A stretch of 64,000 nt of DNA from Bacteroidales bacterium (GTDB taxonomy: Bacteria; Bacteroidota; Bacteroidia; Bacteroidales; F082): NCBI GenBank assembly GCA_017395365.1, contig JAFPUN010000003.1:248001-312000 (forward strand), given 5' to 3'. Under the pieces are notes generated by a model. The model did not search any database. It was not told the DNA's origin and was given only the letters and a program-made list of their open reading frames with translations. Position numbers and translations under genes: made by a program. Below, piece by piece: positions 33,462 through 55,610 of the stretch; position 1 is the stretch's first letter; every line of letters starts with the position of its first letter.

Positions 33462-34477
33462 TCTTCTTGGAGGTCAGCCTCATGCTCACCCATGAAGAAC
33501 GTTGCCTGTAGGTCATCCTTGAAAGGCGTCCAGTTGCCGCAGATGATGCCATCGTGGGCGATGATAGGCTGGAAGATGCCGCTGTTGTTGTGGGCCTTGT
33601 GGCTATAGTCAGGTGAGAGGACGATGTCGCGGCTCTTGTAGCCGATGAGGTATTCATCATAAGGCGGAATCAGGAGATATTTGCCTTTGCGGAAACCTCG
33701 GGTGCGGCAATCGTCTGTAAAATAATATTCCCTGCGTGGTAGAGACGCAAAATTTTGCGTCTCTACATGCAGGGAATTACCTAATATCTCAATTCCCCGC
33801 CTGCATTCGTTGATATTCAGCCCCGACCACCACACGAAATCCTCCAACGTGGCTGGTTGGCGGCTTTGAAAATATTTCCGCGCAAGCATCGCCAAAGCCT
33901 CATCGCGGTCCATCTTGACATGGTTCTTTACCTTTTCTGAAGCGAGGGCGTAGGTCGCCTTCATTGGCAACAAGTCGCCGCTGCAAAGCGTCCCCGACAG
34001 TTCAGCATAGCGGATGTGGTACGAAAGGCGATGGTCGTCCATGTGGATGTCTTTCTCCGCCAAGGCCTCAACACAGTCTTCCTTGGTAACGCTGCCCTTT
34101 TCGGCAGCCGTCTGGACAAGGATTTCCCTAATGCGTTTTACCTCCTCATCGGGAATGCTAATCTTATTACTGTGCATCCATCCCTTGATGACCGCCAAGG
34201 CCTTTGCCGAACAAAGCTCGAGCAAGGGCCAGTAGTCCTCGGCCGACACGAGTTGCCAAGTGCCGCGCATCAGGTGCAGACGGATGATCTGTCCGCTGTC
34301 GAAGGCCTTTTTGAAGGCTTTGGCAGAGGGCTTTTGGGTCCGCATCGCCACCGCCCAGCGCATCAGGCGGTACTCCTGAGCCTGCATCGCACCCATGTGG
34401 CTGACCACCGCTTCGGGCTTGTCGAACTGGGGGCAGATGAGCTGCTGGTTGAGCAACCGGATGGCAACGGGATTCAT
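33434..34477 (-). CDS. Winged-helix DNA-binding protein, YcaQ/AlkX-like (HTH_42)
   Basis: 347-residue cytosolic protein of the winged-helix family that includes the DNA glycosylases AlkX/YcaQ and AlkZ. Signatures: HMGAMQAQEYRLMRWAVAMR (the QxQ motif of the catalytic loop in glycosylase members), LHLMRGTWQLVSAEDYWPLL, and LIPPYDEYLIGYKSRD. A 51-bp palindromic insertion at 33727-33777 encodes 17 in-frame residues (about NSLHVETQNFASLPRRE) between two beta-rich segments of the third winged helix region. The reading frame is preserved on both sides. It is followed, with overlap, by the esterase remnant and preceded by a thioesterase gene. Confidence 0.85.
   Translation of the reverse strand: MNPVAIRLLNQQLICPQFDKPEAVVSHMGAMQAQEYRLMRWAVAMRTQKPSAKAFKKAFDSGQIIRLHLMRGTWQLVSAEDYWPLLELCSAKALAVIKGWMHSNKISIPDEEVKRIREILVQTAAEKGSVTKEDCVEALAEKDIHMDDHRLSYHIRYAELSGTLCSGDLLPMKATYALASEKVKNHVKMDRDEALAMLARKYFQSRQPATLEDFVWWSGLNINECRRGIEILGNSLHVETQNFASLPRREYYFTDDCRTRGFRKGKYLLIPPYDEYLIGYKSRDIVLSPDYSHKAHNNSGIFQPIIAHDGIICGNWTPFKDDLQATFFMGEHEADLQEEWKRYMHCL
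33727..33777. repeat. Palindromic element, copy 3, inserted in frame in the winged-helix gene
   Basis: The core 33738-33767 is the 30-bp palindrome (GTAGAGACGCAAAA and TTTTGCGTCTCTAC around the centre). The symmetry extends outward with ATTCCCTGC (33727-33735) and GCAGGGAAT (33769-33777). The total of 51 bp equals 17 codons and has no stop in the host frame. Confidence 0.85.
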
Positions 34478-34485
34478 TGTAGGGC

Positions 34486-34872
34486 TTATTTGAACTTGGA
34501 CATGAACTTCTCGCTCTCCACGATAAAGCGTTCGTGGATGCCTTCGCCAACAAGCGTTGTGTCTTCAAAACACTTCACTTCGAACACCAGGCGGCGGCGG
34601 TCCACTTCAACGAGTTCGGCCTCACAGCGGATGGTGCTGCCCACAGGACTGGCTTTCAAATGCTTGATGTTCACGGCAATGCCCACTGTCGTGTTGTCTT
34701 CTCCAATCTTGTCGCAAACGCTCATCAGGCAGGTTTTTTCCATAAGGGCAATCATGGCGGGCGTGGCAAACACCTCCAACGCGCCCGAGCCATACACGGC
34801 GGCGGTGTCCTTGTGTTCAACCACAAGCTGTTCGCTGTGGCGAAGTCCTTTCAAAGTGTCGAATTCTGTCAT
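34486..34872 (-). CDS. Thioesterase-like hot-dog protein (FlK group)
   Basis: 128-residue cytosolic protein with the hot-dog pattern of fluoroacetyl-CoA-specific thioesterase relatives: VFATPAMIALMEKTC, followed by NTTVGIAVNIKHLKASPVGS and RRRLVFEVKCFEDTTLVGEG. The ATG at 34872 is preferred; the longer frame would need a TTG inside the peptidase gene. It begins one base after the M28 stop and is followed by the winged-helix gene after 8 bases. Probable housekeeping role in clearing unwanted acyl-CoAs. Confidence 0.82.
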   Translation of the reverse strand: MTEFDTLKGLRHSEQLVVEHKDTAAVYGSGALEVFATPAMIALMEKTCLMSVCDKIGEDNTTVGIAVNIKHLKASPVGSTIRCEAELVEVDRRRLVFEVKCFEDTTLVGEGIHERFIVESEKFMSKFK

Positions 34873-34873
34873 T

Positions 34874-36139
34874 TCAATATCTCTCAATAAAGTCCGTTAC
34901 AATCTTAAAAACCGGTTCGTAGCTATCAAAGATAGCGTTCTTGTATGTGTCATAGATGGTGTGGTAGTACTTGAACGCATCGCCTCCTTCATTCTCGAAG
35001 AAGATGCAAGGCACTTGACGTGCGGCGAAGGGGTAATGGTCGCTGTTGGCGGCCAACTTGCCACGATTCAATGCCTTGAAATAGTGCTTTTCGTTGTTGA
35101 TTTCCTCAAACAAGGCAAAACCACGCAAACCCTCTTCGCTGGCCTCGCAGTACTGCACGGGGTTGTTGTCGCCAATCATGTCAATGTTGAAGAGGTATTT
35201 AATCTGCTCCAACGGGACAATGGGATGCCAGGCATAATACTCCGATCCGCGCAGGTTGGCGTCCTCGCCCGAGAAAGCGATGAAATACATGTCGTATTCA
35301 GGACGGTTTTGAGCATAGTATTTCGCTAAAGTGACGATAGTGGCCGTGCCCGAGGCGTTGTCGTTGGCACCTGCATAAAACACCTTCTTACCGAGGTTGC
35401 CCAAATGGTCGTAATGCGCCGTGAACACATAGCAGCTGTCATGCCGACGACCTTCTACCTTGGCGATGACGTTGAAGCATTCGTAGTCCTTCAAGAACTT
35501 GTTTTCCATGTTCAGCTTGATGGTCTTTGCGTCCTTGGGGAAACGATAAGGCACCCAGATGACGGGCTTGGGGAAGACCTTCTCTCCGTAAGCCTTGTAA
35601 AACTTCAAAGGCTCCTCCCAAGTGAAGAGTATGCCTGCCACAGGACCGAACTCCTTGCTTTGCATGCGCTTGAAGTCATCCCCATGCTTGTAACTGAACA
35701 TAAAGTCGCAGACCACAAAAACATTTTGGTTCTCGGGTTTCGCCAAGTCATTGAAGATCTTTTCAGCGTCATAAGTGGCCGTGTCGATGTAATAAAGCCC
35801 AAACTCACCCTTGATGCTTGGGTTGAACTCGCGCACGGTGAAGTCAACGCCAGGGATCTGTTTCTTCCCGTCCACCCACATCTCCATTTCTCCTGGGAAC
35901 GTGTTGATATCCAACGTAAAAGGCTGACAGAGGACCCTGTCAACACCCATCTTGGCAAACTCTTTGGCAAGATAATTCCCAGCCTTGTTGGCACCGTCTT
36001 TGGCGTAACCGCGACCTTGGTACTTTGAAGAACTTAACTCCTTGACAATCTTTTTGTATTGTTTCAAGTCCTGTGCGTTTACCTGCACTGCGGCAAAAAA
36101 CACAGTGAAAAGAAGTACAAATAATGTTCTTTTAATCAT
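34874..36139 (-). CDS. Secreted M28-family zinc aminopeptidase
   Basis: 421-residue exported peptidase. A signal peptide (VQVNAQ) is followed by a PA-domain-like insertion (about residues 110-220) and the M28 core: YVFTAHYDHLG (metal His and Asp), AGANDNASGTATIV (bridging Asp), FIAFSGEDANLRGSEYY (catalytic and metal Glu/Asp), LFNIDMIGDN (metal Asp) and SDHYPFAARQVP (metal His). All five ligands are in place. The start is at 36139 because the promoter box 36164-36171 overlaps the longer frame. It is the first gene of the operon M28 - thioesterase - winged-helix. Confidence 0.93.
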   Translation of the reverse strand: MIKRTLFVLLFTVFFAAVQVNAQDLKQYKKIVKELSSSKYQGRGYAKDGANKAGNYLAKEFAKMGVDRVLCQPFTLDINTFPGEMEMWVDGKKQIPGVDFTVREFNPSIKGEFGLYYIDTATYDAEKIFNDLAKPENQNVFVVCDFMFSYKHGDDFKRMQSKEFGPVAGILFTWEEPLKFYKAYGEKVFPKPVIWVPYRFPKDAKTIKLNMENKFLKDYECFNVIAKVEGRRHDSCYVFTAHYDHLGNLGKKVFYAGANDNASGTATIVTLAKYYAQNRPEYDMYFIAFSGEDANLRGSEYYAWHPIVPLEQIKYLFNIDMIGDNNPVQYCEASEEGLRGFALFEEINNEKHYFKALNRGKLAANSDHYPFAARQVPCIFFENEGGDAFKYYHTIYDTYKNAIFDSYEPVFKIVTDFIERY

Positions 36140-36163
36140 AACGATAGAATTTGAAATTTGTCG

Positions 36164-36171
36164 CAAAAATA
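36164..36171 (-). promoter_or_regulatory. Promoter -7 box of the M28 operon
   Basis: The minus strand reads TATTTTTG followed by C, 24 bases upstream of the ATG at 36139. Confidence 0.55.
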
Positions 36172-36203
36172 GTTTTTTCCTGCAATCTATTTAGAAAAAG
36201 AAG

Positions 36204-36211
36204 TACTTTTG
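36204..36211 (+). promoter_or_regulatory. Promoter -7 box of outer-membrane barrel gene (leaderless)
   Basis: TACTTTTG ends only 6 bases before the ATG at 36218, so transcription should begin at or within a base or two of the start codon. Confidence 0.5.
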
Positions 36212-36217
36212 CAATCT

Positions 36218-36853
36218 ATGAAAGAGAAAAAACTGCTCATATTGCTTCTCCTTTGGCTCATCGGTACAGGCTCGTTGATGGCCCAGCGCCTTGGTGGCGG
36301 CTTGATGTTGGGCCCGACCTTCAGCACCATGAGCATCAGCGGGAACGACAGCACGCGGTTCCGTCCCGACTTCACAGGTGGTGTGCGCATCGCCCTCTTC
36401 CCTAAACGTTCTATCGTTGGCGCTGAAATCGATGTGCTCTATTCGCGACAGGGTACGAGTTCAAAGAAAGGCTTGGATGCCAACAACAACACGATTCGCT
36501 ATTTGGAGAAGTCGCATTACATCAATGTGCCCTTGCTGCTCAATATCTATTTCCGCAAATGGAACGAGGACGACGAGGACGAATCGATGATTCCGAGGCT
36601 GCGCATCGGACCACAAGTGGGCTTTTGCATCGGTGGCAATGACGTGACGGATCTAAAGATCAAGAAGAAAAGGCAGCAATACATCACTCCATGGGAGTCG
36701 GGCAGTTTCAACCGCATCGACTATGGCATTACGGCTGCCTTGAGTTATTGGTTCATCGAAGTGCGCTACACCTTTGGCATGGCCAATGTCTTCAAGGAAG
36801 GCGAGAAATCCACCAACCATGTGATTTCGGTCACTTGGTCGGATATTTGGTAG
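36218..36853 (+). CDS. PorT-like outer membrane beta-barrel protein
   Basis: 211-residue exported protein with a signal peptide ending SLMAQ. Alternating-hydrophobicity strands then follow in the pattern of the outer-membrane-protein beta-barrel family (PF13568-like): GGGLMLGPTFSTMSI, VGAEIDVLYSRQGTS, HYINVPLLLNIYF, LRIGPQVGFCIGG, and the closing FIEVRYTFGMANVF. About eight to ten strands are expected. The C-terminal residue is Trp (SDIW), suitable for Bam recognition. The gene is monocistronic with a predicted leaderless transcript. Confidence 0.87.
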   Translation: MKEKKLLILLLLWLIGTGSLMAQRLGGGLMLGPTFSTMSISGNDSTRFRPDFTGGVRIALFPKRSIVGAEIDVLYSRQGTSSKKGLDANNNTIRYLEKSHYINVPLLLNIYFRKWNEDDEDESMIPRLRIGPQVGFCIGGNDVTDLKIKKKRQQYITPWESGSFNRIDYGITAALSYWFIEVRYTFGMANVFKEGEKSTNHVISVTWSDIW

Positions 36854-36879
36854 GGATTACGAAAAAAACTATACATTTG
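36846..36879 (+). promoter_or_regulatory. Promoter of trkA
   Basis: TTTG at 36846-36849 (overlapping the end of the preceding gene) and a -7 box TACATTTG at 36872-36879, 22 bases apart and 22 bases before the trkA ATG. Confidence 0.5.
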
Positions 36880-36901
36880 CAGTTTTGAAATATTGTAAAC
36901 C

Positions 36902-38242
36902 ATGAACATCGTAATAGCTGGAGACGGAGAAGTAGGCATGCACTTGGCGGAGGCCTTGGTGCGCAGCAACCATAACATCACCATCGTGGACCCACACGAG
37001 GAACTGCTGAAGATGATGGAATCGCACAGCGACCTGATGACAGTCACGGGCGACTCCACCTCAACCGCCGTGCTGCAACGCGCCAATGTGAAAAAAGCCG
37101 ACCTTATGATGGCCGTGCTCCACGACGAGCACATCAACCTGCTGACGGGCATCATCGCCAAAAAACTGGGCGCCAAGAAAGTCATCGCACGCGTCAACAC
37201 GATGGAGAACTTGAGTCCCGAGGTATGGCGCATGTACCAAGACCTCGGCATCGACGGACTGCTCTCGCCCGAAGACATTGCCGCACAAGAGATCATCTCG
37301 CTATTGAAGAAAAACGCCTCGTCGGAGACCTATGACTTCGCAGGCGGCAATCTGCAACTCTTCATGGTGAAGCTGGAACCTGAAGCGGAGATCCTCGGCA
37401 AGACCGTCGACGAGGTCATCGACCAATATGAACACATTGAGTTCCGCGTGGCAGCCATCCATCGTCGTCAGAACACCTTCGTGCCGCAAGGTGACGAGAT
37501 CTTCCAAGTGTCCGACATGGTGTATGTGGTCACCAAGCCGCATGCCATCAAAGACATCATCAAATTGAGCGGCAAGAAACAAATCAATGTACACAATGTG
37601 ATGATTGTCGGCGGCGGGCGCGTGGGACGCATCACCGCCAAACGCCTTGAGAAAGAGTTGAATATCAAGATTTTGGAAATCGACAAAGAGCGTTGCATGG
37701 ACCTGACCAACTACCTCTCGGAGGCTTTGGTCGTCAACGCCGACGCCCGTAACCTCGACTTGCTCGAAGACGAGGGCATCAAGGACATGGACGCCTTCAT
37801 CGCCGTCACTGACAACACCGAGACCAACATCTTGACTTGCCTGCAAGCCAAGTCATTCGGCGTGAAGAAGACCATCGCCCTCGTCGAGAACATCGACTAC
37901 ATCGACATCTCACAGAACATTGGCATCGACTCCATCATCAACAAGAAACTCATCGCGGCCAGTTACATGGTGAAATACACTTTAGGCGCCAAAGTGGCGT
38001 CACTGAAAAGCTTAAGTGGCATCGATGCCGACATTGTGGAGTTCCAAGTAAGGGCCGGCTCTGCGGTCACACGCAAGCCTATCGGCCAACTGGCCATGCC
38101 TACTGATGCCATCATCTGCGGCATCACCCGCGACGGCGAGAGTTACATCCCCACCGACGATTTCCAGATCGAGACCGACGACCAGGTTGTGGTGCTGGCC
38201 TTGCCTGCTGGCATCCCCGCTGTTGAACGCTTATTCCATTAA
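36902..38242 (+). CDS. trkA: Trk potassium uptake regulatory subunit TrkA
   Basis: 446-residue peripheral NAD-binding protein that gates the TrkH potassium channel. It has two RCK (TrkA-N) Rossmann domains, opening with IVIAGDGEVGMHLAEAL (residues 2-18) and VMIVGGGRVGRITAKRL (about 235), each with an acidic residue at the end of strand 2. Each is followed by a TrkA-C domain, the last near VEFQVRAGSAVTRKPIGQLA. The tandem double-RCK form is the standard bacterial TrkA. The trkH gene follows, with a possible small ORF between. Confidence 0.96.
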   Translation: MNIVIAGDGEVGMHLAEALVRSNHNITIVDPHEELLKMMESHSDLMTVTGDSTSTAVLQRANVKKADLMMAVLHDEHINLLTGIIAKKLGAKKVIARVNTMENLSPEVWRMYQDLGIDGLLSPEDIAAQEIISLLKKNASSETYDFAGGNLQLFMVKLEPEAEILGKTVDEVIDQYEHIEFRVAAIHRRQNTFVPQGDEIFQVSDMVYVVTKPHAIKDIIKLSGKKQINVHNVMIVGGGRVGRITAKRLEKELNIKILEIDKERCMDLTNYLSEALVVNADARNLDLLEDEGIKDMDAFIAVTDNTETNILTCLQAKSFGVKKTIALVENIDYIDISQNIGIDSIINKKLIAASYMVKYTLGAKVASLKSLSGIDADIVEFQVRAGSAVTRKPIGQLAMPTDAIICGITRDGESYIPTDDFQIETDDQVVVLALPAGIPAVERLFH

Positions 38243-38246
38243 TGCT

Positions 38247-38363
38247 ATGGCATCACAAAACAGACAAAACTATCAAAACCGTTTGTTGAGCATAGAAAGT
38301 CGCCAACCGGCTCCTTTCCAACGCATCCTAAAGGATGCCCGAAAGCCTTTGCAGGTTTTGTAG
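38247..38363 (+). CDS. Candidate small ORF between trkA and trkH, 38 aa
   Basis: The ATG at 38247 lies 4 bases after the trkA stop and the TAG at 38361 is 22 bases before the trkH ATG. The product, starting MASQNRQNYQNRLLSIESRQ, is basic and has no membrane segment. The same DNA forms an imperfect inverted repeat (ATCACAAAACAGACAAAAC near 38252 against AGGTTTTGTAGGTTTTGTGA at 38353-38372), so the frame may be incidental to an RNA or DNA structure. Confidence 0.3.
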   Translation: MASQNRQNYQNRLLSIESRQPAPFQRILKDARKPLQVL

Positions 38364-38385
38364 GTTTTGTGACAAAAAACAACCC

Positions 38386-39849
38386 ATGAAGTGGAAAACT
38401 AAAATAAACCATCCTTTAGTCCTCCGCATCGAAGGCCAGCTGATACTCATCGAAGGTCTCATGATGCTGACGGTGCTCCCCGTGACCTATCTCCACCACG
38501 GGCTTTACGCCTTCAGCATGCCTTTCTCGGCCCTCATCACCCTGCTCACTGGCTTCATCCTACTCATCGCCACACGCAAGCACAAAGACGAAAAAACAAG
38601 TTCGCGCGACGGCGTCTATGTCGTCTGCATCTCATGGCTTGTGCTCTCGCTTTTCGGCGCCATGCCCTACCTGCTCAGCAAGAGCGTACCCAACTTTACC
38701 GATGGCTTTTTTGAAGCCTTGTCGGGCTTCACCACCACGGGAGCCACCATCTTCACGCGTATCGAGGATGTTCCGAAAGACATCCTCCTCTGGCGCAGCA
38801 TGACGCAATGGTTGGGCGGCTTGGCCATCATCGTGTTCACCATCGCCATCCTTCCCTATCTCGGCATGAGTGGCATGCAACTCTTCGTGGCGGAAATCAA
38901 TGGCATCAACTACGACAAACTGCATCCGCGCATCATGCATACCGTCAGGCGCATCTGGGGTATGTATCTCTTTTTCACCCTATTGGAGACACTCCTTCTC
39001 TATTGGGGTGACATGGACTTCTACGATGCCATCTGCCACTCGATGACTACCATCAGCTCGGGAGGATTCTCCACCCGGACGGAAAGCCTCGGCGCTTTCT
39101 CTAACTACTCGCAGGTTGTGGTCACCATCTTTATGGTGCTGTCGGGCTGCAACTTCTCGTTGCTCCTGCTCTCGTTGAGTTGGCGGTCGTTTGCCATCTT
39201 CAAAAACCAAGAATTCAAGACCTTCCTGCTTTACATCCTATTCATCAGCCTCGGCATCGGAATCGTGTTGGTATTCGCCCGCCATCTGAGTTTCGGCACT
39301 GCCTTCCGCCAATCGTTCTTCGGTGTCATCTCGGCTTTCACCACCACGGGGTTCTTCATCGGCGACTACACAGCCTGGCCTTCTTTCCTTTGGGTTATGC
39401 TCTTCTTGCTCATGTTTATTGGTGGCTGTTCAGGTTCCACCTCGGGTGGCGTGAAGATCTTCCGCCATCTCATCTTCACCAAAAACTCGATGCTTGAGTT
39501 GAAGCGCATCATCCACCCCAACGCCGTGTTGCCCGTGAAAGTCAACGGGAAGTCCATTTCGACCAGTGGCGTCTACAAAAATGTCTCGTTCATCTTCATC
39601 TATTTCCTCGTCTTCCTTGCCGGAGCCATCGTCTTGCTCTTCACGGGTACCGACTTCAACACTGCCATTGGTGCTTCGGTGGCCACCTTGAGCAATGTAG
39701 GCACGGGTGTTGGACTCGTAGGGCCTGGCGGTTCCTATGTCGCCTTCCCATTGGGCGCCAAGTGGATCCTTATGCTTCTGATGATCCTCGGCAGGGTGGA
39801 GCTTTTCTCATTGATTACGCTACTTTCGCGGAGTTTTTGGAGAAATTAA
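38386..39849 (+). CDS. trkH: Trk potassium uptake channel TrkH
   Basis: 487-residue inner-membrane potassium channel subunit. It has four pore-loop repeats with selectivity-filter glycines: ALSGFTTTGATIF, SMTTISSGGFSTR, VISAFTTTGFFIG and VATLSNVGTGVGL, each preceded by a hydrophobic helix pair. It works with TrkA encoded just upstream. The start at 38386 (MKWKTKINHP) is preferred over the longer frame that would run through the intergenic repeat. Confidence 0.95.
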   Translation: MKWKTKINHPLVLRIEGQLILIEGLMMLTVLPVTYLHHGLYAFSMPFSALITLLTGFILLIATRKHKDEKTSSRDGVYVVCISWLVLSLFGAMPYLLSKSVPNFTDGFFEALSGFTTTGATIFTRIEDVPKDILLWRSMTQWLGGLAIIVFTIAILPYLGMSGMQLFVAEINGINYDKLHPRIMHTVRRIWGMYLFFTLLETLLLYWGDMDFYDAICHSMTTISSGGFSTRTESLGAFSNYSQVVVTIFMVLSGCNFSLLLLSLSWRSFAIFKNQEFKTFLLYILFISLGIGIVLVFARHLSFGTAFRQSFFGVISAFTTTGFFIGDYTAWPSFLWVMLFLLMFIGGCSGSTSGGVKIFRHLIFTKNSMLELKRIIHPNAVLPVKVNGKSISTSGVYKNVSFIFIYFLVFLAGAIVLLFTGTDFNTAIGASVATLSNVGTGVGLVGPGGSYVAFPLGAKWILMLLMILGRVELFSLITLLSRSFWRN

Positions 39850-39973
39850 GGTCAAAAACCTCCTAAATCCTTGGACTTCCCCGAAAAAAGTTTGGAACGA
39901 ATAAACTTTCAACTAATTCATTCACAAATTATTACATTTCAAAAACCTTGAAAAAGTTTGGACTGCCCTTTCA

Positions 39974-39999
39974 ACCGCTTGTCGAAAGTGGTAGTTTTG
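39974..39999 (+). promoter_or_regulatory. Palindromic operator-like element with -7 box, upstream of the TPR/HTH gene (copy 1)
   Basis: ACCGCTTGTCGAAAGTGGT (39974-39992) is an interrupted dyad that runs directly into the -7 box TAGTTTTG (39992-39999). The same arrangement recurs at 41560-41585 after the gene, within longer stretches of similarity that include GTTTGGA words upstream. Confidence 0.55.
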
Positions 40000-40022
40000 T
40001 GATGCTGAAACGAGATCTTGTT

Positions 40023-40030
40023 TATTTTTG
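40023..40030 (+). promoter_or_regulatory. Second -7 box of the TPR/HTH gene (leaderless)
   Basis: TATTTTTG ends 5 bases before the ATG at 40036, implying a leaderless transcript from this promoter. The box at 39992-39999 would instead give a leader of about 30 bases. Confidence 0.45.
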
Positions 40031-40035
40031 TCCCC

Positions 40036-41448
40036 ATGAAACTGCAGCATCTGGTTTTGTCTTTCCTTGTTACCATGTTGGCTGCTTGCCATCCTACATC
40101 CCGTGATGTGAAGCAAGTTGCCCAAGATGCCTTGGAAAACGCTCGTATTCAGTTGGATTCAGGCAATAAAGTGGAGGCTATGCGCTTGTTTAAAGAAGCG
40201 GAGCATTACGGCATTATGGCAAATCAAACTCTGATGGTGGCTCATGCACGGTATCATATTGCGCAATGCTTGGGCTACTATGCTGACAAAGAAGAAGTTG
40301 TTTCGTTGTTGAAGGCTGCTGCCGAGGGCTTTGGCGAAGACTATGCCGACCGAGCCGAGGCATTGAGGGAGTTGGGCGATTTCTATCAGTACCATGGACA
40401 ATTTGATAGCTCAGCATATTATTTGGATCAGGCCCTAGAGTATGCCGAGCAAAGCGGGTCTTTGGAAGCAAAGCGCGACTGCTTGTCGGCCTTTCATGTC
40501 ATGTATTTCAATGCGGGGGATTACGAAAAGTCGGCCAACTACCTTAGCCAGTTTTGGCAAGCTTCGATTGCAAATGCTGACGACAACTTGCTGATGTATT
40601 ATTATCATGACATGGGGAACATCTTTTATGAGTCCGGCAACTTGGATTCTGCTGATTATTATTACAGCCGTTTGGAGGAACTTGTGTCCCAAACAGAGCC
40701 AAACGCGGATACTTGGTTCTATTACGGTGTCTTGTCCGATTATGCCGAAGAACTCGGCGATTATGAAACCGCTTGCAAATATGGATGTTTGTACGAAGAA
40801 GGCAACAATCTAAAAGAAATAGAGCAACAGGAGAACAATCTTGCGCTTATCAGCCATAAATACGACAGCGAGGTGATGCAGAACGAGTTGAATCGTAAAA
40901 TCATTATCAAGCAACGCATCATCGTCATTGTCAGTTTGGTAGCGACTTTGGTCTTGGCTGCGTTGTTGGTTTCGCAAATCCGCTTGGCAAGGCGACGCAA
41001 GCGCGAGGCCGAAATCAATGCCGAGCTGTTCCACTTCAAGCAGCAGAACAAAGACTTGGCACAAAAACACGCCGAGCATGAGCAAATCCAGCAGGATTAT
41101 GCCGACCGCCTTTCGGAGGCCTTGATGAAGGAACAGCGTATCATGTTGTTGTTGGACAATTATCTGAACAGCAACAAAAAAGCCAATCTTCTCAAGGATT
41201 TGGAGACCTCCGTTTATGACGACAAAGACCATTGGGAAGCCATGCTGGAAGTGATTGACCAACTCTATCCCGACCTTACAGCAACCCTTCAGCAGAAGTA
41301 TCCCGATTTGGACGAGGACGAAAAGAAATCCTACATCCTCTCTTATTTCAAACTCTCGCGCCAAGAGGAAGCGGATTACCTTGGAACCACCGTCAATATG
41401 GTGGACAAACTGCGCGGAAGACGGAGGAAAAAGATGGAGAAAGGGTAA
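40036..41448 (+). CDS. TPR lipoprotein regulator with transmembrane helix, coiled coil and C-terminal HTH
   Basis: 470 residues. A lipoprotein-type N-terminus (MLAACHPTS, Cys18) precedes about 280 residues of TPR-like helical repeats (ALRELGDFYQYHGQFDSSAY, DMGNIFYESGNLDSADYYYS), one transmembrane segment (IIVIVSLVATLVLAALLVSQ, about residues 300-320) and a long coiled coil. The C-terminal HTH reads YPDLDEDEKKSYILSYFKLS then RQEEADYLGTTVNMVDKLRG. This is the Bacteroidota membrane-tethered regulator type. The topology places TPRs outside and HTH inside, so it may sense an envelope signal. Flanking duplicated dyads suggest autoregulation and control of the DUF1573 gene downstream. Confidence 0.85.
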   Translation: MKLQHLVLSFLVTMLAACHPTSRDVKQVAQDALENARIQLDSGNKVEAMRLFKEAEHYGIMANQTLMVAHARYHIAQCLGYYADKEEVVSLLKAAAEGFGEDYADRAEALRELGDFYQYHGQFDSSAYYLDQALEYAEQSGSLEAKRDCLSAFHVMYFNAGDYEKSANYLSQFWQASIANADDNLLMYYYHDMGNIFYESGNLDSADYYYSRLEELVSQTEPNADTWFYYGVLSDYAEELGDYETACKYGCLYEEGNNLKEIEQQENNLALISHKYDSEVMQNELNRKIIIKQRIIVIVSLVATLVLAALLVSQIRLARRRKREAEINAELFHFKQQNKDLAQKHAEHEQIQQDYADRLSEALMKEQRIMLLLDNYLNSNKKANLLKDLETSVYDDKDHWEAMLEVIDQLYPDLTATLQQKYPDLDEDEKKSYILSYFKLSRQEEADYLGTTVNMVDKLRGRRRKKMEKG

Positions 41449-41559
41449 AAAACTTTGGACTGTTTCCAAAAAATGTTTGGAATAGGTGTTGAGCTATCTC
41501 TTTTGTTTTCAAGATTTTAGGTTATTTTAATACTCGGAATTGTTCGGAATGACTGTCCA

Positions 41560-47635: not shown

Positions 47636-47647
47636 AACTTGGAAACC

Positions 47648-48952: not shown

Positions 48953-48980
48953 CCTACAGCCTGCCGGATGAATTATTTCT

Positions 48981-49067
48981 CACGCAGAAATCGCAGAATA
49001 CGCTGAACCTGCCAGAGGCAAACTTCGCATCGCTTTGCGTTTCATATAGTTCTGCGGATTCTGCGTG
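48981..49067. repeat. Inverted-repeat element (CACGCAGAAATCGCAGAA arms)
   Basis: CACGCAGAAATCGCAGAA (48981-48998) pairs with TTCTGCGGATTCTGCGTG (49050-49067) with 2 mismatches in 18. The 51-base interior contains a second small dyad (CGCATCGCTTTGCG). It looks like a small non-autonomous element or stable hairpin between the barrel gene and the GH97 terminator. Confidence 0.65.
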
Positions 49068-49087
49068 CCAAATAAAGAGGCATCATT

Positions 49088-49121
49088 AAAGCCATCGAAA
49101 GCGATTTCGGTGGCTTTTTTT
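49088..49121 (+). terminator. Rho-independent terminator upstream of the GH97 gene
   Basis: AAAGCCATCGAAA and TTTCGGTGGCTTT form a 13-bp stem (one G-T pair) with a four-base loop, followed by seven T. It ends the barrel gene transcript and is directly followed by the GH97 promoter. Confidence 0.85.
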
Positions 49122-49150
49122 GTGAAGTGTGGCAAAAATCTTTATTTTTG
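49119..49150 (+). promoter_or_regulatory. Promoter of the GH97 gene
   Basis: TTTG at 49119-49122 (in the T-run of the terminator) and the -7 box TATTTTTG at 49143-49150, 20 bases apart and 21 bases before the ATG. Confidence 0.6.
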
Positions 49151-49171
49151 CCTGCATAAAACTATACCAAC

Positions 49172-51160
49172 ATGAAAAAACTCCTCCTCTTTACGCTCAT
49201 TATGCTTTGCGTGAGCGCCTTTGCCCAAAAGCAATACACCTTGCAATCGCCCGACAAGGACATCACCGTCACCATTGAGGCGGGCGAACAGCTTACCTAC
49301 GCTGTATCGCATGGAAACACCTGCGTATTGACGCCCTCGCCCATAGGGATGAAACTCACCGACGGCACCACGCTTGGCACAAAACCAGTCGTGAAAAGCG
49401 CCAAAACGCGCTCGGTCAACCAGTCTTTAACCTCACCCCTATACAAAAAAGCCGAAATCCCTGAAGTCTACGAGGAACTGACACTAACCTTCAAAGGCAA
49501 CTACAAAGTTGTCTTCCGCGCCTACGATGCTGGTGTGGCATACCGTTTCGAGACCGACTTCCGTAAGCCTATCATCATAGAAAACGAGACCGCAGATTTT
49601 AACTTTGACAAGGATTATCAAGGCCTTATCCCATATGTTTTAAGGCGTGCCGGACAAGAAGGTCCACTCATCGACCAGCAGTTCTACAACTCTTTTGAGA
49701 ACACCTACTCCCACATCAACCTCAACCAGATGGACCCCGAAAAGCTCGCCTTCTTACCTTTGCTGGTCGAACTCAAGGACGGGAAAAAAGCCGTCATTAC
49801 TGAAGCCGACTTGGAGGACTTCCCCGGCTTGTATCTACGTAACGCCAACGGCAAAAACGGACTCTCCGCCGTCCACGCGCCCTATCCCAAGACCCGCGAG
49901 CAAGGCGGCCACAACAACCTGCAATGGATTGTGAAAGAACGCGAGAACTACATTGCCAAGACCGCTGGCAAACGCGCTTTCCCTTGGCGCATCATCACCA
50001 TCTCTGAAAATGACAAAGAGCTAGCCGACAACGATTTGGTTTATCTCCTGGCCTCACCCAACCGCATTGGTGATGTCTCGTGGATCCAGCCTGGAAAGGT
50101 GGCGTGGGACTGGTGGAACGCATGGAACATCTATGGCGTCGACTTCAAGGCGGGCATCAACAACGATACCTATAAGTACTACATCGACTTCGCCTCGCAA
50201 TACGGCATCGAATATGTCATCCTCGATGAAGGATGGGCTGTCAACAAAAAGGCTGACCTCTTCCAAGTGGTGCCTGAAATCGACATCAAGGAACTGGTGG
50301 ACTATGGTGCCGAGCGCAATGTGGGCATCGTGCTTTGGGTGGGCTATGCCGCCATCGACAAGGACATGGAACATGTGTGCCAACACTATGCTGACATGGG
50401 CGTGAAAGGCTTCAAGGTCGACTTCATGGACGGCGACGACCAGATGATCGTCGACTTCTACTACCGCATGGCCGAGACCGCCGCCCGTCACCACCTCTTC
50501 ATCGACTTCCACGGTGCCTACAAGCCCACGGGCCTCAACCGTACTTATCCCAATGTGCTCAACCACGAGGGAGTGTATGGTCTCGAGCAAGCCAAATGGG
50601 ACAACGAGAGCGACCTTGTCACCAACGAAGTTACCATCCCCTTCATCCGCATGTTGGCCGGTCCGCTCGACTACACCCAAGGCGCGATGAAAAACGCCAA
50701 CAAGAACAACTTCGCCGCCATCTACACCGAGCCGATGAGCCAAGGCACGCGCTGCCGTCAGTTGGCTGAATATGTAATCTTTGAGTCCCCGTTCAATATG
50801 CTCTGCGACAGCCCGAGCAACTACATGAAGGAAGACGAATGCACCCAATTCATCGCTTCCGTTCCCACCACTTGGGATGAGACCATGGTGCTCGACGGCA
50901 AGGTGGGCGAATACCTCGTCATCGCCCGCCGCAAGGACTTCCGTTGGTATGTGGGTGCCATCACCAACTGGGAAGAACGCGACATAGAAATCGACCTCGG
51001 TGTGTTGCCCAACTTCGGCGCCAAGTCGGGCCACATCTTCCGCGACGGTCCCAATGCCAACCGCGTGGCTAAGGACTATGTGTCAGAACAAGCCCAAGTG
51101 TGGGGCAACAAGGTGAAAGTGCATCTCGCCAAAGGCGGCGGTGCCGTGATGGTGTTCTAA
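49172..51160 (+). CDS. GH97 family glycosidase (SusB-like alpha-glucosidase)
   Basis: 662-residue exported (beta/alpha)8-barrel enzyme of glycoside hydrolase family 97. It has a signal peptide (VSAFAQ) and an N-terminal beta-sandwich (YTLQSPDKDITVTIEAGEQL). The barrel shows KVAWDWWNAWN, YVILDEGWAVNK, GVKGFKVDFMDGDDQMIVDF and HLFIDFHGAYKPTGLNRTYP, then NHEGVYGLEQAKW, which carries family acidic residues, and a C-terminal sandwich. SusB degrades starch oligosaccharides; other GH97 members are alpha-galactosidases. No SusCD genes accompany it. Three small unknown proteins and a GH78 enzyme follow on the same strand. Confidence 0.95.
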   Translation: MKKLLLFTLIMLCVSAFAQKQYTLQSPDKDITVTIEAGEQLTYAVSHGNTCVLTPSPIGMKLTDGTTLGTKPVVKSAKTRSVNQSLTSPLYKKAEIPEVYEELTLTFKGNYKVVFRAYDAGVAYRFETDFRKPIIIENETADFNFDKDYQGLIPYVLRRAGQEGPLIDQQFYNSFENTYSHINLNQMDPEKLAFLPLLVELKDGKKAVITEADLEDFPGLYLRNANGKNGLSAVHAPYPKTREQGGHNNLQWIVKERENYIAKTAGKRAFPWRIITISENDKELADNDLVYLLASPNRIGDVSWIQPGKVAWDWWNAWNIYGVDFKAGINNDTYKYYIDFASQYGIEYVILDEGWAVNKKADLFQVVPEIDIKELVDYGAERNVGIVLWVGYAAIDKDMEHVCQHYADMGVKGFKVDFMDGDDQMIVDFYYRMAETAARHHLFIDFHGAYKPTGLNRTYPNVLNHEGVYGLEQAKWDNESDLVTNEVTIPFIRMLAGPLDYTQGAMKNANKNNFAAIYTEPMSQGTRCRQLAEYVIFESPFNMLCDSPSNYMKEDECTQFIASVPTTWDETMVLDGKVGEYLVIARRKDFRWYVGAITNWEERDIEIDLGVLPNFGAKSGHIFRDGPNANRVAKDYVSEQAQVWGNKVKVHLAKGGGAVMVF

Positions 51161-51198
51161 TTCGATGATATTGAGAAAACCACCAAAACAATAATACC

Positions 51199-51864
51199 AT
51201 GAAAAGACACATCATTCTTGCTCTTATTGCATTGACATTGGTTTCGTGCGGTGGAGCACAACAACAAAACCTGTCAAATGAAAAGTTGATCGACAATTTC
51301 GCAGCACTTGTCGACACACCAGCAACTGAAAACCCAGACGAGAACACTTTTCCCGAACTGGTGTTCGAAGACTTTGACTTCGAAAAAGCAGACGACAACG
51401 AATCTGTTGTCGTCCCACAAGTGCTGCTGAATGCCCAAAAGATGATAATCAATGGGAAGCAAGTAAAGATTACCGATGGAAAGAAAGAAATAACCGCGCA
51501 GATAGACCTTAAAGAAAGCTATGAAGATATTAGTTCTGACGGGGTTTATTCTTGGGTGTTTAATACTAAAGATAACGACGCCCTACCAAAAGTGAACTAT
51601 ATTTCCATCGAGACCAACTATCCCGTGGAGCACATGGAGCAGATGCAACCCTATATGGGCGCCGAACACGCTCCACTTAAAATTACCGTCGACAACATTG
51701 GCAACTACTATCCCAAGCGCTTTAACCAATGGAAGGACATTAGACGCAAATTGTTGGCCAATTGTCCTTCCAACGGAGAGTATTACGACAACATGGATTG
51801 GGCAAATAGCGATCAAACCACAGAAGGCTTGGAAGCATTACGAGGCATTGATGGAGACCACTAA
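51199..51864 (+). CDS. Hypothetical lipoprotein, 221 aa
   Basis: Unrecognised. The N-terminus is a lipoprotein signal (TLVSCGGAQ, Cys17). The mature part is acidic, with an Asp/Glu-rich linker (ENTFPELVFEDFDFEKADDN) and a beta-rich core (MIINGKQVKITDGKKEITAQ). Terminal residues are polar. It starts 38 bases after the GH97 stop and is probably in the same transcript. Confidence 0.75.
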   Translation: MKRHIILALIALTLVSCGGAQQQNLSNEKLIDNFAALVDTPATENPDENTFPELVFEDFDFEKADDNESVVVPQVLLNAQKMIINGKQVKITDGKKEITAQIDLKESYEDISSDGVYSWVFNTKDNDALPKVNYISIETNYPVEHMEQMQPYMGAEHAPLKITVDNIGNYYPKRFNQWKDIRRKLLANCPSNGEYYDNMDWANSDQTTEGLEALRGIDGDH

Positions 51865-51932
51865 AGAAAAGAATAACAAACAACCATTACAATAACTTAC
51901 TTATGTCAAACTAATAACGAAAGGAACAAACT

Positions 51933-52358
51933 ATGATTAATTTGATTGGAAAATGGAAAGCTGCAGAGATGGTTTACTTCAACGAAGAAAAAGGCACCAT
52001 GGATTGGGCCAAGGTAGAAGACATCCTTGCAAAAGACGATCTCGACAAGGACACACGCTTTATGGCCAATATGGTGTATGTGTTCGGCGAAGACGGCACG
52101 ATTACCATGTTGACTCCCTTGCCTGAAGGTGTCAGCCAAGCCGAAGTGGATGCTGCCGTGAAGGCCGGCCAACTTGAATTAAGAGACGGCATGATGTTCA
52201 TGGGAGAACAGCATTGGAAGGTCGAAGACGGAAAGAATATGACCGATACGGGCCTCGAAGGCGAATTGCTGGGCGAGAAGGTTGGCCCGTGGGAGGAAGT
52301 CAAAGAAATCGATGAAAAAACCATCCAGATAATGCTTTATCGCTTGAAGAAAGTCTAA
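51933..52358 (+). CDS. Lipocalin-like cytosolic protein, 141 aa
   Basis: No signal peptide. The sequence starts MINLIGKWKAAEMVYFNEEK and continues as predicted beta strands (MANMVYVFGEDGTITMLTPL, then GQLELRDGMMFMGEQHW), which resembles lipocalin-like domains where GKW opens the barrel. Ligand unknown. It is followed after 4 bases by the next gene, implying co-translation. Confidence 0.7.
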   Translation: MINLIGKWKAAEMVYFNEEKGTMDWAKVEDILAKDDLDKDTRFMANMVYVFGEDGTITMLTPLPEGVSQAEVDAAVKAGQLELRDGMMFMGEQHWKVEDGKNMTDTGLEGELLGEKVGPWEEVKEIDEKTIQIMLYRLKKV

Positions 52359-52362
52359 CTTG

Positions 52363-52797
52363 GTGATAGACATCTTTTTCGAGAAAGAGTATTGGGTGGT
52401 GGATTTCCTGCCCAAACAGGTTCCAGAAAATGCCGGAGGAAGGTTTTTCTCCGTAGAAGACTATTATCTAGAGCCATCGCGCTATGTTGTCCTACGGGAA
52501 CAGTTCTCCGACATCCTGTTGAAGCTGTATTGTTACTATGATTTGCGTTTGTTCATAGGCGACGACACCGAAGGCCTCGTCAACCCTGACCCAGAGAGAC
52601 TCGCCGACCTTGTCAAAGGCAACCAGGATAATTTATGCATCCTCGTAGGCACATCAGATGCCCTCATTACTGTGAGCCGCGACGACACTTGTATGACCGC
52701 TTACGCGCCCGCCGAAGACTTGCTGGAACTGATTCGGGCACTTGCGGGGGCGGTGGGATTGTTTGTTTGGAAACCAGCCGTTCAATCTGATATGTAA
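52363..52797 (+). CDS. Hypothetical protein, 144 aa (GTG start)
   Basis: Unrecognised. No ATG is available at the beginning; the GTG at 52363, 4 bases after the preceding stop, is the best start (a TTG lies just before it). Features are an IDIFFEKEYWVVDFLPKQ opening, a PSRYVVLREQFSDILLKLYC segment and NLCILVGTSDALITVSRDD. No signal peptide, membrane segment or metal motif is visible. It probably belongs to the unit with the lipocalin-like gene. Confidence 0.65.
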   Translation: MIDIFFEKEYWVVDFLPKQVPENAGGRFFSVEDYYLEPSRYVVLREQFSDILLKLYCYYDLRLFIGDDTEGLVNPDPERLADLVKGNQDNLCILVGTSDALITVSRDDTCMTAYAPAEDLLELIRALAGAVGLFVWKPAVQSDM

Positions 52798-52835
52798 TCC
52801 AGAACAAACAATAAACATTTGATAAACAGTACACC

Positions 52836-55610
52836 ATGAAATATCGACTCCTATTCTTCCTCACACTTGCAGCAACATCCCTATTGCTTTTCGCCTGCAA
52901 CGACAAGCTCAACATCACCATCACCAACCCCAATGTGGAACAACAAGTCCACGAGCAGCCTTTGGCCACGGCGCAGCCGCGTTTCAGTTGGAATTATGGG
53001 ACCGACCGCCGAAGTGATGAAGAAAATCCAACCACGGAAAGTGAGGTCATGCAACAAAACTACCGCATCATCGTGGCCACAACCGCCGAAAACGCCAAAA
53101 AAAGCATCGGCGACCTTTGGGATTCGGGTGTGGTTCCTTCAAATCAAATGCTTTACATCCCTTATACAGGCAAGGAGCTGAAAAGCCGCGACAAGGCCTA
53201 CTGGAAAGTCATCACGACGGTGACAGCTAAAGGTGGAAAGAAAGCCAAGCTTGCAAGCGAAGTCAAATCGTTTGAAATCAGTCTGTTGAACCAAGACGAC
53301 TGGCAGGCCAAATGGATTGGCCATGAGTTTGAGGACGATGTGCTGATAGGGAAAACCCGATTGGCAGCGCGTTATCTCCGCAAGGAATTTGCCCTCAAAA
53401 GCGAGGTCAGCGAGGCGAGGCTCTATGTCAGCGGCATGGGCGTTTATAGCGCCTACCTCAATGGACGGGAAATCGCGCCCGAGGAACTGCTGAAGCCTAC
53501 GCTTTCATGGTACTCGAAGCGCGTGTATTTCAACACCTATGATGTGACCAAGATGCTCCAGCAAGGCGACAACGCCGTGGGCATTATCCTTGAAGGCGGA
53601 CGCTATACTTCCCTCCGCTACAACGCCGCCAATCCCAATTGGGATGGCACAGACCATGTGTTTGGCTTCGGTACGCCACGACTGCTTCTGCAACTCGAAG
53701 TGACGTATAAGGATGGCCAAAAGGAGACCATCGTCAGCGATGAGACATGGAAGATTACCAACCGTGGCCCCATCCGCACCGCCAACGAATGGGATGGCGA
53801 GACCTATGACGGAAACTTTGACCTCGGCGACTGGAACCAAGCCGACTACGATGATTCCGCATGGCATCAAGCCGAACTTGTAGAAGCCCCAGAAGGTCAA
53901 CTCACGGCCCAACCCAATCCTAACATCACGGTGATGGAGAAACTGAAACCTGTCAGTCTGTTCCAAAAAGGTGACAAATGGTATCTTGACATGGGCCAAA
54001 ACATGGTCGGCTTCATCGATATGAAGGCTCGCGGACAACAACCCAGAGACACCATCACCCTGCGTTATGCCGAACTACTCACCCCCGACAGCCTTCTCTA
54101 TACCGCCAACCTGCGCAGTTCCGAAAACACCGATCGTTTTATTGTTGACTGTAGAGACGTGGCGCGCCGCGTCTCTACAAACCAACAATCAACAATACAC
54201 TGGCACCCGATGTTCGTCTACCATGGTTTCCGTTACGTTGAAATCTCTGGCCTGCGCGAGGCGCCCAATTTGGACGACTTCGAAGGCTGGGTCATCTATG
54301 ACGAGATGCCCGTAACGGGTTCGTTTGAGACCTCCAACGAGATCATCAATGCGGTGTACCACAACGCCTACTGGGGCATCCGCAGCAACTACCGCTCCAT
54401 GCCCACCGACTGCCCGCAACGCGATGAACGCATGGGCTGGACAGGCGATCGCACTACGGGTAACTACGGCGAGTCGTATATCTTCAATAACCACCAACTT
54501 TACGCCAAGTGGCTCACCGATGGCGACGACAGCCAACAGGAAAATGGCTCGTTGGCCAATGTCATCCCGCCCTATTGGCGTGGCTACACCGACAACATGA
54601 CCTGGCCTGGCGCCATGATCACCGTGACGGACATGCTTTATACCCGCTTTGGCGACTTGGAGCCCATCCGCCAACACTATGTAGCTTGGAAGAAGTGGAT
54701 GCTCCACATGAAAAACGACTATATGCGGGCCGGCCTCATGCCCCGCGACACTTACGGCGATTGGTGCATGCCGCCCGAGTCGCTTGAACTCATCCACTCC
54801 AATGACGCGACCCGCATTACCGATGCGACGGTCATCTCCACGCCGTTCTACTGCTACCTCTGCGGCAAGATGGCCAAATTCGCCGAGATTTTAGGCTTCG
54901 ATGAAGATGTGGCATTCTTCCAGAAGGAAATTACCACCTCCACCATCGCCTTCAACGACAAGTATTTCAACCGTGTGACAGGCGTCTACGCCAACAACAC
55001 CGTCACTGCCAATATCCTGCCCTTGTGGTTTGGCATGGTACCTAAAGGTTTGGAAGACAAGGTGATGGAAAACATCGTGGACAAGACCGAGAACGAATGT
55101 GGCGGCCATGTCTCGACGGGCGTGGTCGGCATCCAGCAGCTGATGCGTTGCCTGACAGAATACGGCCACGGCGACCTTGCTTTCAAGATTGCCTCCAACG
55201 ACACCTATCCGAGCTGGGGGTACATGTATCGTAACGGTGCTACCACCATTTGGGAACTTTGGAATGGCAATACCGCCGATCCTGCCATGAACTCTGGCAA
55301 CCATGTCATGCTCCTTGGTGACCTCATCCTTTGGGAATACGAATACCTCGGTGGCATCCGTGCCTTGGAGCCAGGCTATAGCAAAATCCAACTCAAGCCT
55401 TATCCCATTGAGGGACTGGATGTTGTGAATTGTGCCTACAACTCTGTTTCAGGTCGCATAGAAAGCAATTGGAAACGCGAAGGCAAACGATTTGAATGGG
55501 ATTTCACCATCCCTGCCAACACTACAGCAGAGGTCTGTCTGCCTACGGCAAACGGTTATGAGGTGAAAACCTACGGCAGCGGGAAATACCATCTGTCGTC
55601 TGAGTTGTGA
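52836..55610 (+). CDS. GH78 alpha-L-rhamnosidase, lipoprotein
   Basis: 924-residue enzyme that releases rhamnose from plant polysaccharides (rhamnogalacturonan) or flavonoids. It has a lipoprotein signal (LLLFACNDK), an N-terminal fibronectin-like domain, the lectin-like domain (LYVSGMGVYSAYLNGREIAP, then YFNTYDVTKMLQQGDNAVGI), the catalytic (alpha/alpha)6 barrel (PTDCPQRDERMGWTGDRTTG, carrying catalytic acids) and the C-terminal sandwich. A 30-bp palindrome (54150-54179) is inserted in frame, giving CRDVARRVST in a loop just before the conserved HPMFVYHGFRYVEISG. The gene otherwise has no frameshift. No T9SS domain, consistent with lipoprotein anchoring. Confidence 0.95.
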   Translation: MKYRLLFFLTLAATSLLLFACNDKLNITITNPNVEQQVHEQPLATAQPRFSWNYGTDRRSDEENPTTESEVMQQNYRIIVATTAENAKKSIGDLWDSGVVPSNQMLYIPYTGKELKSRDKAYWKVITTVTAKGGKKAKLASEVKSFEISLLNQDDWQAKWIGHEFEDDVLIGKTRLAARYLRKEFALKSEVSEARLYVSGMGVYSAYLNGREIAPEELLKPTLSWYSKRVYFNTYDVTKMLQQGDNAVGIILEGGRYTSLRYNAANPNWDGTDHVFGFGTPRLLLQLEVTYKDGQKETIVSDETWKITNRGPIRTANEWDGETYDGNFDLGDWNQADYDDSAWHQAELVEAPEGQLTAQPNPNITVMEKLKPVSLFQKGDKWYLDMGQNMVGFIDMKARGQQPRDTITLRYAELLTPDSLLYTANLRSSENTDRFIVDCRDVARRVSTNQQSTIHWHPMFVYHGFRYVEISGLREAPNLDDFEGWVIYDEMPVTGSFETSNEIINAVYHNAYWGIRSNYRSMPTDCPQRDERMGWTGDRTTGNYGESYIFNNHQLYAKWLTDGDDSQQENGSLANVIPPYWRGYTDNMTWPGAMITVTDMLYTRFGDLEPIRQHYVAWKKWMLHMKNDYMRAGLMPRDTYGDWCMPPESLELIHSNDATRITDATVISTPFYCYLCGKMAKFAEILGFDEDVAFFQKEITTSTIAFNDKYFNRVTGVYANNTVTANILPLWFGMVPKGLEDKVMENIVDKTENECGGHVSTGVVGIQQLMRCLTEYGHGDLAFKIASNDTYPSWGYMYRNGATTIWELWNGNTADPAMNSGNHVMLLGDLILWEYEYLGGIRALEPGYSKIQLKPYPIEGLDVVNCAYNSVSGRIESNWKREGKRFEWDFTIPANTTAEVCLPTANGYEVKTYGSGKYHLSSEL
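54150..54179. repeat. 30-bp palindromic element, copy 4, inserted in frame in the GH78 gene
   Basis: TGTAGAGACGTGGCGCGCCG followed by CGTCTCTACA is almost perfectly self-complementary. Outer flanks ATTGTTGAC (54141-54149) and CAACAAT words (54183-54196) extend the symmetry. The host frame reads CRDVARRVST across it. The 30-bp length preserves the frame. Confidence 0.9.

What the first reader, a model, noticed from the sequence alone, without database searches (positions are those of the whole stretch)
33727..54179. A 30-bp palindromic element inserted in frame inside two unrelated genes, in two reading frames
Seen: the same palindrome (arms TGTAGAGACG / CGTCTCTACA) lies within the winged-helix gene (33738-33767, extended to a 51-bp dyad) and within the GH78 gene (54150-54179). 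It is read as VETQNFASLP in the first and CRDVARRVST in the second, so in different frames, both open. Only the third frame contains TAG. In GH78 it falls in a loop just before a conserved motif. Known: Rickettsia palindromic elements and a few others insert in frame into genes. Inferred: a mobile palindrome tolerated in surface loops, with length a multiple of three and two open frames per strand.
Basis: partly seen in the sequence, partly recalled or inferred. Interest (0 to 1): 0.72.

Follow-up and report, generated by a model that had tools for sequence, protein, structure and literature searches.

The report
Jumping DNA hairpins with swappable cores
The repeated palindromes are tiny mobile DNA hairpins linked to a known kind of bacterial transposase; they sit in frame inside ordinary genes, and in related species a hairpin can keep its place and its arms while its middle is swapped for another.

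Summary
The window holds four copies and its genome 67 exact ones (28-mer GTAGAGACG-N10-CGTCTCTAC), against none for the reversed pattern. They are 'double-foot' REPs of TnpA_REP/RAYT transposases of the kind Quentin et al. 2018 call subclass 2.4. One such RAYT gene, on another contig, has copies inside and just upstream of it. So this is a known kind of element; Rickettsia elements are an analogy, not the family.

Two things look new. (1) The REP is modular: nearly invariant arms and a palindromic core that follows the RAYT lineage. Inside and flanking cores match in 33 of 34 RAYT loci that have both. (2) In host genes the core is replaced in place. In the AlkZ-like gene 29 of 54 counted orthologues carry a palindrome at the same site, in six core classes needing 18 changes on the flank tree, as many as shuffled labels (mean 18.1). 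Mean differences: core 63%, arms 5-8%, flanks 14-16%. One T9SS and two U32-gene sites also share junctions with different cores. How cores are exchanged is not shown.

The parts
33739..33766 (.). double-foot REP, core CAAAATTTTG, in frame in the AlkZ-like gene (VETQNFASLP on the minus strand)
33727..33777 (.). 51-bp dyad: the REP plus local outer arms; outer arms are not a general feature of the family
54151..54178 (.). double-foot REP, core TGGCGCGCCG, in frame in the GH78 gene (CRDVARRVST)
54141..54189 (.). outer 7-bp arms ATTGTTG/CAACAAT around the GH78 copy, part of a heptamer-like tract
1113..1140 (.). double-foot REP, core CGGCACGCCA, between convergent ORFs
7850..7877 (.). degenerate double-foot REP, core TTGCGCGCAA, just after the end of ORF 5494-7845
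52836..55610 (+). host gene: GH78 alpha-L-rhamnosidase

Best explanation
The palindrome is a double-foot REP, in effect a REPIN collapsed to one 28-bp hairpin, of TnpA_REP/RAYT transposases of subclass 2.4. Shown: the repeat is dispersed; it lies inside and beside RAYT genes in this genome, in related genomes and in some cyanobacteria; RAYT lineages have their own core on nearly invariant arms; at fixed sites in host genes the core differs between species while arms, frame and, in several sets, exact junctions persist. Inferred: the RAYT nicks and transfers single-stranded hairpins, using GTAG and the lower stem as a common handle and the core as its cognate mark; copies land at gene ends and in tolerant protein segments, and those that keep the frame survive; a resident hairpin can be overwritten because its arms match those of an incoming one. 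Odds: REP/RAYT identity about 0.93; core as RAYT mark about 0.75; in-place exchange rather than loss and re-insertion about 0.65; RAYT as the agent of exchange about 0.4.
For: 67 exact dispersed copies, control 0. GTAG at the foot on both strands, palindromic core in 40 of 67 (5 of 5 pairs) and 24 more (4 of 5). RAYT genes with copies inside: own contig 6 and six named Bacteroidota loci; 40 of 76 RAYT loci have a 10-nt-core hairpin inside, 41 within 500 bp, 34 both. REPIN doublets with GTAG outermost. RAYT identity: NF047646 at 48-55 bits, 4ER8 TnpA_REP as nearest solved chain, E 9.9e-8, NHxH, WQ and Y motifs. Inside and flanking cores agree within one base in 33 of 34 loci; 27 of 28 non-redundant, permuted mean 4.1, maximum 11 of 2000. 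Core labels on the RAYT tree: 17 changes, minimum 16, shuffled mean 45. Genomes with a GTGTGCACAC RAYT hold 20, 33, 25 and 15 such stems against a mean of 1.3 in 95 others. Core turnover at fixed sites. Cyanobacteria.
Against: The RAYT matches NF047646 only below its cut-off of 80 bits, and Pfam PF01797 misses three of four tested. 29 of 76 RAYT loci lack a 10-nt-core hairpin; 25 of these carry other GTAG hairpins (control). One genome without a GTGTGCACAC RAYT among the loci examined, G106, has 18 such stems, and for TAGCRYGCTA the link is not clean: G015 has 25 and G032 24 without a matching RAYT among the loci examined, while genomes with one have 7-15. The core at the AlkZ site often does not match the RAYT cores seen in the same genome (own genome: CAAAATTTTG against RAYTs with GTGTGCACAC, CGATTCATCG and CAATGCTTTG). 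In cyanobacteria a RAYT with a CGATGAATCG core falls outside the Bacteroidales class with that core. Some junction changes go with core changes. No activity was tested.
Confidence: 0.8

Rival explanations
1. The hairpins are RAYT REPs, but cores are exchanged without RAYT: a fork stalled at the hairpin switches template to another copy through the 9-bp arms, or short conversion tracts between species carry cores about.
For: Close pairs differ in the core with 0-1 changes in 45 bases to the left (L239/L241, L240/L245). Arms less diverged than flanks. Paired arm changes GTTGAGACG/CGTCTCAAC and GTGGAGACG/CGTCTCCAC at the AlkZ site fit copying between arms.
Against: Nine-base arms are short for ordinary recombination (general knowledge). 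Conversion between species does not by itself explain how six core classes first reached one site.
Confidence: 0.35
2. Each core is a separate insertion into a tolerant hot spot after loss of the former element.
For: Different hairpin families and short forms occupy the same U32-gene sites in different species; different REPs at about the same recB site are reported in two Xanthomonas species (Di Nocera 2013, section 15).
Against: Different cores share the same junction scars and net gains: eight AlkZ alleles with identical ends hold three cores; U32 site 1 has A, G and C cores in one 36-nt frame, site 2 E, N and Q. Of the 25 AlkZ orthologues counted without a palindrome, 22 have the 12-nt native form.
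Confidence: 0.25
3. Native sequence kept for a function, such as a protein-binding site or an RNA hairpin, not a mobile element.
For: Arms shared across phyla; copies at gene ends.
Against: Absent from distant orthologues at the same site, two reading frames and unrelated host genes, copies inside transposase genes, no Rfam match in the window.
Confidence: 0.03
4. Assembly artefact.
For: The own genome is an incomplete assembly (25 contigs, 72.6% complete). Reads were not available.
Against: The same GH78 insert in a second genome (G091) and AlkZ inserts at the same site in 29 counted genomes.
Confidence: 0.01

Closest known systems
TnpA_REP subclass 2.4 and its double-foot REPs (Quentin et al. 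2018, PMC6006769; sections 12 and 23 and passages read, supplements not seen)
   Different: Not described in what I read: a constant lower stem with exchangeable cores that follow RAYT lineage, and core replacement at fixed sites of host genes.
REPINs (PMC3116915; abstract and passages)
   Same: Inverted REP pairs with GTAG outermost occur at several RAYT loci here.
   Different: Most copies in the own genome are single palindromes with both feet.
Intragenic GTAG and CGTC REPs (Di Nocera et al. 2013, PMC3733652; first eighth of the text, section 15 and passages)
   Same: REPs in frame inside genes; different REPs at about the same recB site in two Xanthomonas species.
   Different: GTAG repeats were listed there for Proteobacteria, Cyanobacteria, Chloroflexi and the PVC group, not for Bacteroidetes.
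Rickettsia palindromic elements
   Same: Short palindromes in frame inside genes.
   Different: They end in CGTC (PMC3733652); these end in GTAG/CTAC.
Small dispersed repeats of Nostoc (Elhai et al. 2008; recalled, not in the library)
   Same: Recalled: very small hairpins with compensatory changes, often within heptamer repeats.
   Different: Sequences could not be compared here.

Membership tests
Double-foot REP of TnpA_REP subclass 2.4 | 5' GT[AG]G foot and 3' C[TC]AC foot on one hairpin | tested here: met
   67 exact copies in the own genome
Double-foot REP of TnpA_REP subclass 2.4 | REPs flank the transposase gene | tested here: met
   41 of 76 RAYT loci within 500 bp
Double-foot REP of TnpA_REP subclass 2.4 | REPs inserted in frame inside the transposase gene, after the HuH motif | tested here: met
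   40 of 76; position in alignment A2
Double-foot REP of TnpA_REP subclass 2.4 | protein motifs NH[IFV]H, WQ, YIxNNP | tested here: met
   NHxH invariant, WQ nearly so, YIxNN common; the final P is V in many; table of the paper
REP-associated tyrosine transposase (NF047646) | score over the curated cut-off of 80 bits | tested here: not met
   48-55 bits in 4 of 4 tested; nearest solved chain is nevertheless 4ER8, TnpA_REP
TnpA_REP | cuts and joins its REP | not testable with these tools
   no experiment
REPIN | two REPs in inverted order, GTAG outermost | tested here: met
   doublets at several RAYT loci; the window copies are single hairpins
Rickettsia palindromic element (CGTC REP) | ends in an unpaired CGTC tag | tested here: not met
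   ends are GTAG/CTAC
MITE | target-site duplication | tested here: inconclusive
   no shared flanking pattern beyond T or G before GTAG; empty forms show replacement scars, not clean insertion
Nostoc small dispersed repeats | sequence of the families | not testable with these tools
   paper not in the library

The most novel reading that the evidence does not exclude
A cassette-exchange system: nearly invariant 9-bp arms, found under labels of 12 phyla, are a common docking frame, and the palindromic core is an owner's tag. Different RAYTs overwrite one another's tags in place at long-lived docking sites inside host genes, so the core of a gene's hairpin records the last RAYT that wrote it. 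The site is inherited for long; the tag turns over so fast that it is random with respect to the host gene's tree.
Probability: 0.3. Interest if true: 0.85.

Novelty: new variant of a known kind. Interest (0 to 1): 0.62.

Why it matters
How RAYTs spread REPs is poorly understood (abstract of Corneloup et al. 2021), and the enzymes tested there read different parts of the hairpin. Sixteen core classes (eight seen at two or more RAYT loci), mostly on one constant frame and each beside its own enzyme, are a ready-made set for asking which bases are read. Sites where the core changes while the scar stays offer a natural assay of REP movement or conversion. It also shows that short peptides in annotated proteins of these bacteria (VETxxxxSL, CRDxxxxVST) are mobile DNA.

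Tried and rejected
PF01797 search for the mobiliser gave five Y1 genes, none with the arms within about 1.5 kb; the RAYT came from ORFs next to copies. A general outer dyad: not enriched, so the 51-bp dyad is local. Clean insertion of 30 bp: not borne out at the sites read closely. Copies are under-represented in ORFs: 41 of 67 lie in an ORF of 100 aa or more, against 93% of random windows of the same stretches. Text search for GTAGAGACG: 143 papers, the 20 listed were unrelated. Rfam: 0 hits in the window. Plasmids and phages rarely hold this RAYT (4 of 72,556 records and 1 of 50,697). The 28-mer is in 109 stretches of viral contigs, not followed up. Core classes for the RAYT tree were grouped by me (within 1 nt of listed types) after seeing the cores and before the tree. 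For the AlkZ count L293 (empty segment) and L294 (unresolved 162-nt segment that does hold a palindrome) were dropped. L241 was dropped from the AlkZ protein alignment because a wrong ORF had been taken. Two of 30 GH78 loci (L224, L236) did not align at the site. No account of core replacement appeared in paper searches; subscription papers and supplements were not seen. Structure jobs were unfinished.
Full report
Observation. The window holds two more, at 1112 and 7849. The own genome G000 (2.11 Mb, 25 contigs, 72.6% complete; the window is C16:248001-312000) has 81 copies of the 30-mer with up to two mismatches and 67 exact copies of the 28-mer GTAGAGACG-N10-CGTCTCTAC; the reversed-pattern controls are 0. 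Cores are mostly palindromes themselves: 40 of 67 pair at five of five positions and 24 at four; there are 19 kinds, led by GTGTGCACAC (20) and CGGCGCGCCA (12). With a free core length 294 of 301 matches in the loci then held had 10 nt, but most of those loci had been fetched with a fixed 10-nt pattern, and RAYT lineages with 9- or 11-nt cores turned up later.

Spread. Of 60 relatives, own included, 43 have the 28-mer: own, 34 of 35 others of the genus, and 8 of 24 from other families of the order. In a Bacteroidota sample it is 51 of 395, own included. Perfect cores shared between Cyanobacteria (16 kinds) and Bacteroidota (18 kinds): 4, where 0.28 is expected if all 1024 were equally likely, p 1e-4. 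That may reflect transfer or a limited set of usable cores.

The enzyme. Clustering ORFs within 3 kb of copies in the named loci showed one family at six Bacteroidota loci, each with a palindrome inside the gene. The own genome has a member on contig 6: a 188-aa ORF at L176 2502-3068, one copy just upstream and one inside. The family matches NF047646 (REP_Tyr_transpos) at 48-55 bits, below the cut-off of 80. Its nearest solved relative is 4ER8, TnpA_REP, and it has the NHxH, WQ and Y motifs of subclass 2.4 as tabled by Quentin 2018. In the genus 70 of 99 genomes match. I examined 70 loci (30 returned, 40 fetched; further matches, mostly fragments, were not taken) and 6 named ones. Of the 76, 40 have a 10-nt-core hairpin inside, 41 within 500 bp, 34 both, 29 neither. 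Of the 29, 25 show two or more other GTAG hairpins in a loose scan, among them 9- and 11-nt cores on the same arms; random stretches of similar size show two or more in 4 of 95. Several loci hold REPIN doublets with GTAG outermost. Of 14 cyanobacterial genomes chosen because they hold the palindrome, 11 have a match; at four loci the RAYT contains or is flanked by hairpins of one core type, and a fifth has an 11-nt-core hairpin beside it.

Core and RAYT. Inside and flanking cores agree within one base in 33 of 34 loci; without redundant sets 27 of 28, against a permuted mean of 4.1 and maximum of 11 in 2000. On the RAYT tree the 17 labels (16 core classes and none) need 17 changes where 16 is the minimum and shuffles give 45. 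Near copies make such clustering easier; classes E, B and H are each one side of a well-supported branch (98-99), while A needs 3 changes there and G 2. With cyanobacteria added, a CGATGAATCG RAYT falls outside class E. Four genomes with a GTGTGCACAC RAYT hold 20, 33, 25 and 15 such stems; the other 95 have a mean of 1.3 and a maximum of 18 (G106), Mann-Whitney p 9e-5. Among those 95, G004 has a RAYT with the variant core ATGTGCACAT and no exact stem. For TAGCRYGCTA the link is not clean: 7-15 stems in five genomes with such a RAYT, but 25 and 24 in G015 and G032, where none was among the loci examined.

Host genes. Of 67 own copies 41 lie in an ORF of at least 100 aa, fewer than the 93% of random windows, and 33 in ORFs of at least 180 aa. 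Only the two open frames are used. Hosts include the AlkZ-like gene, GH78, a U32-family gene with four copies, LptD_2, GH77, a GHMP kinase, an isomerase-like gene with two copies, and T9SS sorting domains.

Core replacement. AlkZ orthologues, 56 segments: 55 are a multiple of three; 22 have a 12-nt native form, and the carriers counted have 24-33 nt. With L293 and L294 dropped, 29 of 54 carry a palindrome, in six core classes. On a tree of the flanks presence or absence needs 4 changes, the core 18 among carriers; shuffled labels need 18.1 on average, and 59% of shuffles need no more than observed. Mean pairwise difference: core 0.631, left arm 0.077, first five bases of the right arm 0.052, flanks 0.163 and 0.136. 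Close pairs differ in core but little around it: L239/L241 1 of 45 bases left and 3 of 45 right, L240/L245 0 and 7. One junction class with identical ends holds three cores in eight members. But some junction changes go with the core: GTGTGCACAC and TGCCATGGCG alleles often carry extra AAC triplets on the right. In the U32 gene (30 orthologues, four sites; 120 of 120 segments a multiple of three) site 0 is native in 27; site 1 has nine GTGTGCACAC cores, one CAAAATTTTG and one GTGCATGCAC in the same 36-nt frame; site 2 has CGATTAATCG, TGGCGCGCCG-type and CACGGCCGTG cores in one frame; other species carry unrelated hairpin families or short forms. Six paralogous T9SS domains in the own genome share both junctions with three cores. 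GH78 is less telling: of 28 loci aligned, only G091 shares the own element; five have a TTGCGCGCAA palindrome at a shifted place, others heptamer tracts, other inserts or a short form.

Reading. Identity as a double-foot REP of subclass 2.4 follows from anatomy and gene association. In-frame hosting is then most simply selection on a scattered element. Resemblance of native bases to the REP ends at empty sites (GTGGAG, GAGAC) hints at microhomology on entry; this was noticed, not tested. Shared scars with different cores favour exchange in place over loss and re-insertion. RAYT strand transfer and template switching are both open. The core at the AlkZ site often does not match a RAYT seen in the same genome, the own one included, which is a point against the simplest RAYT-driven model, though the RAYT sample is partial. 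In print: Quentin 2018 names double-foot REPs and their in-frame insertion in the transposase gene (sections read), Di Nocera 2013 intragenic REPs (section read), Nunvar 2010 co-evolution of RAYT and REP (passages), Corneloup 2021 loop reading by group 3 enzymes (abstract and passages). Nine searches of the open library showed no account of core replacement. Surface exposure rests only on sequence gaps against solved homologues, since the structure jobs were unfinished.

Noticed in passing
window 9030-9680: A second, different Y1 transposase gene (9212-9661, PF01797) is flanked by CGTCCCTACGGGAC-type palindromes at 9030 and 9667: another small transposase and repeat pair.
   Followed up: partly
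L413 and L422, U32-gene site 2: Hairpin pairs beginning CGTCATTGCGAG sit at the same in-frame site that holds GTAG REPs in other species; they look like CGTC-type REPs (my reading, consensus not seen). The motif occurs 5 times in 317 kb of own sequence.
   Followed up: partly
L211-L238, GH78 loop: Sister species carry in-frame heptamer tandem repeats (TCAACAA or CTCTCAA type) at the loop where the own genome has the REP.
   Followed up: no
L366 109-400: Four TTACATGTAA double-foot REPs at an exact 89-bp period beside a cyanobacterial RAYT.
   Followed up: no
G485:C22:35019-35569: Five identical REPs within 550 bp in another Bacteroidota genome.
   Followed up: no
L252, L257, L294 (AlkZ site): Both arms changed in step: GTTGAGACG/CGTCTCAAC and GTGGAGACG/CGTCTCCAC, as if one arm had been copied to the other.
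   Followed up: no
L192, L194, L196, L201: The four TAGCGCGCTA-core copies of the own genome lie outside ORFs of 100 aa or more; this core adds a stop to one of the two open frames.
   Followed up: no
window 33742-33763: The arms contain GAGACG/CGTCTC, the BsmBI/Esp3I recognition sequence, pointing outward (site name recalled).
   Followed up: no
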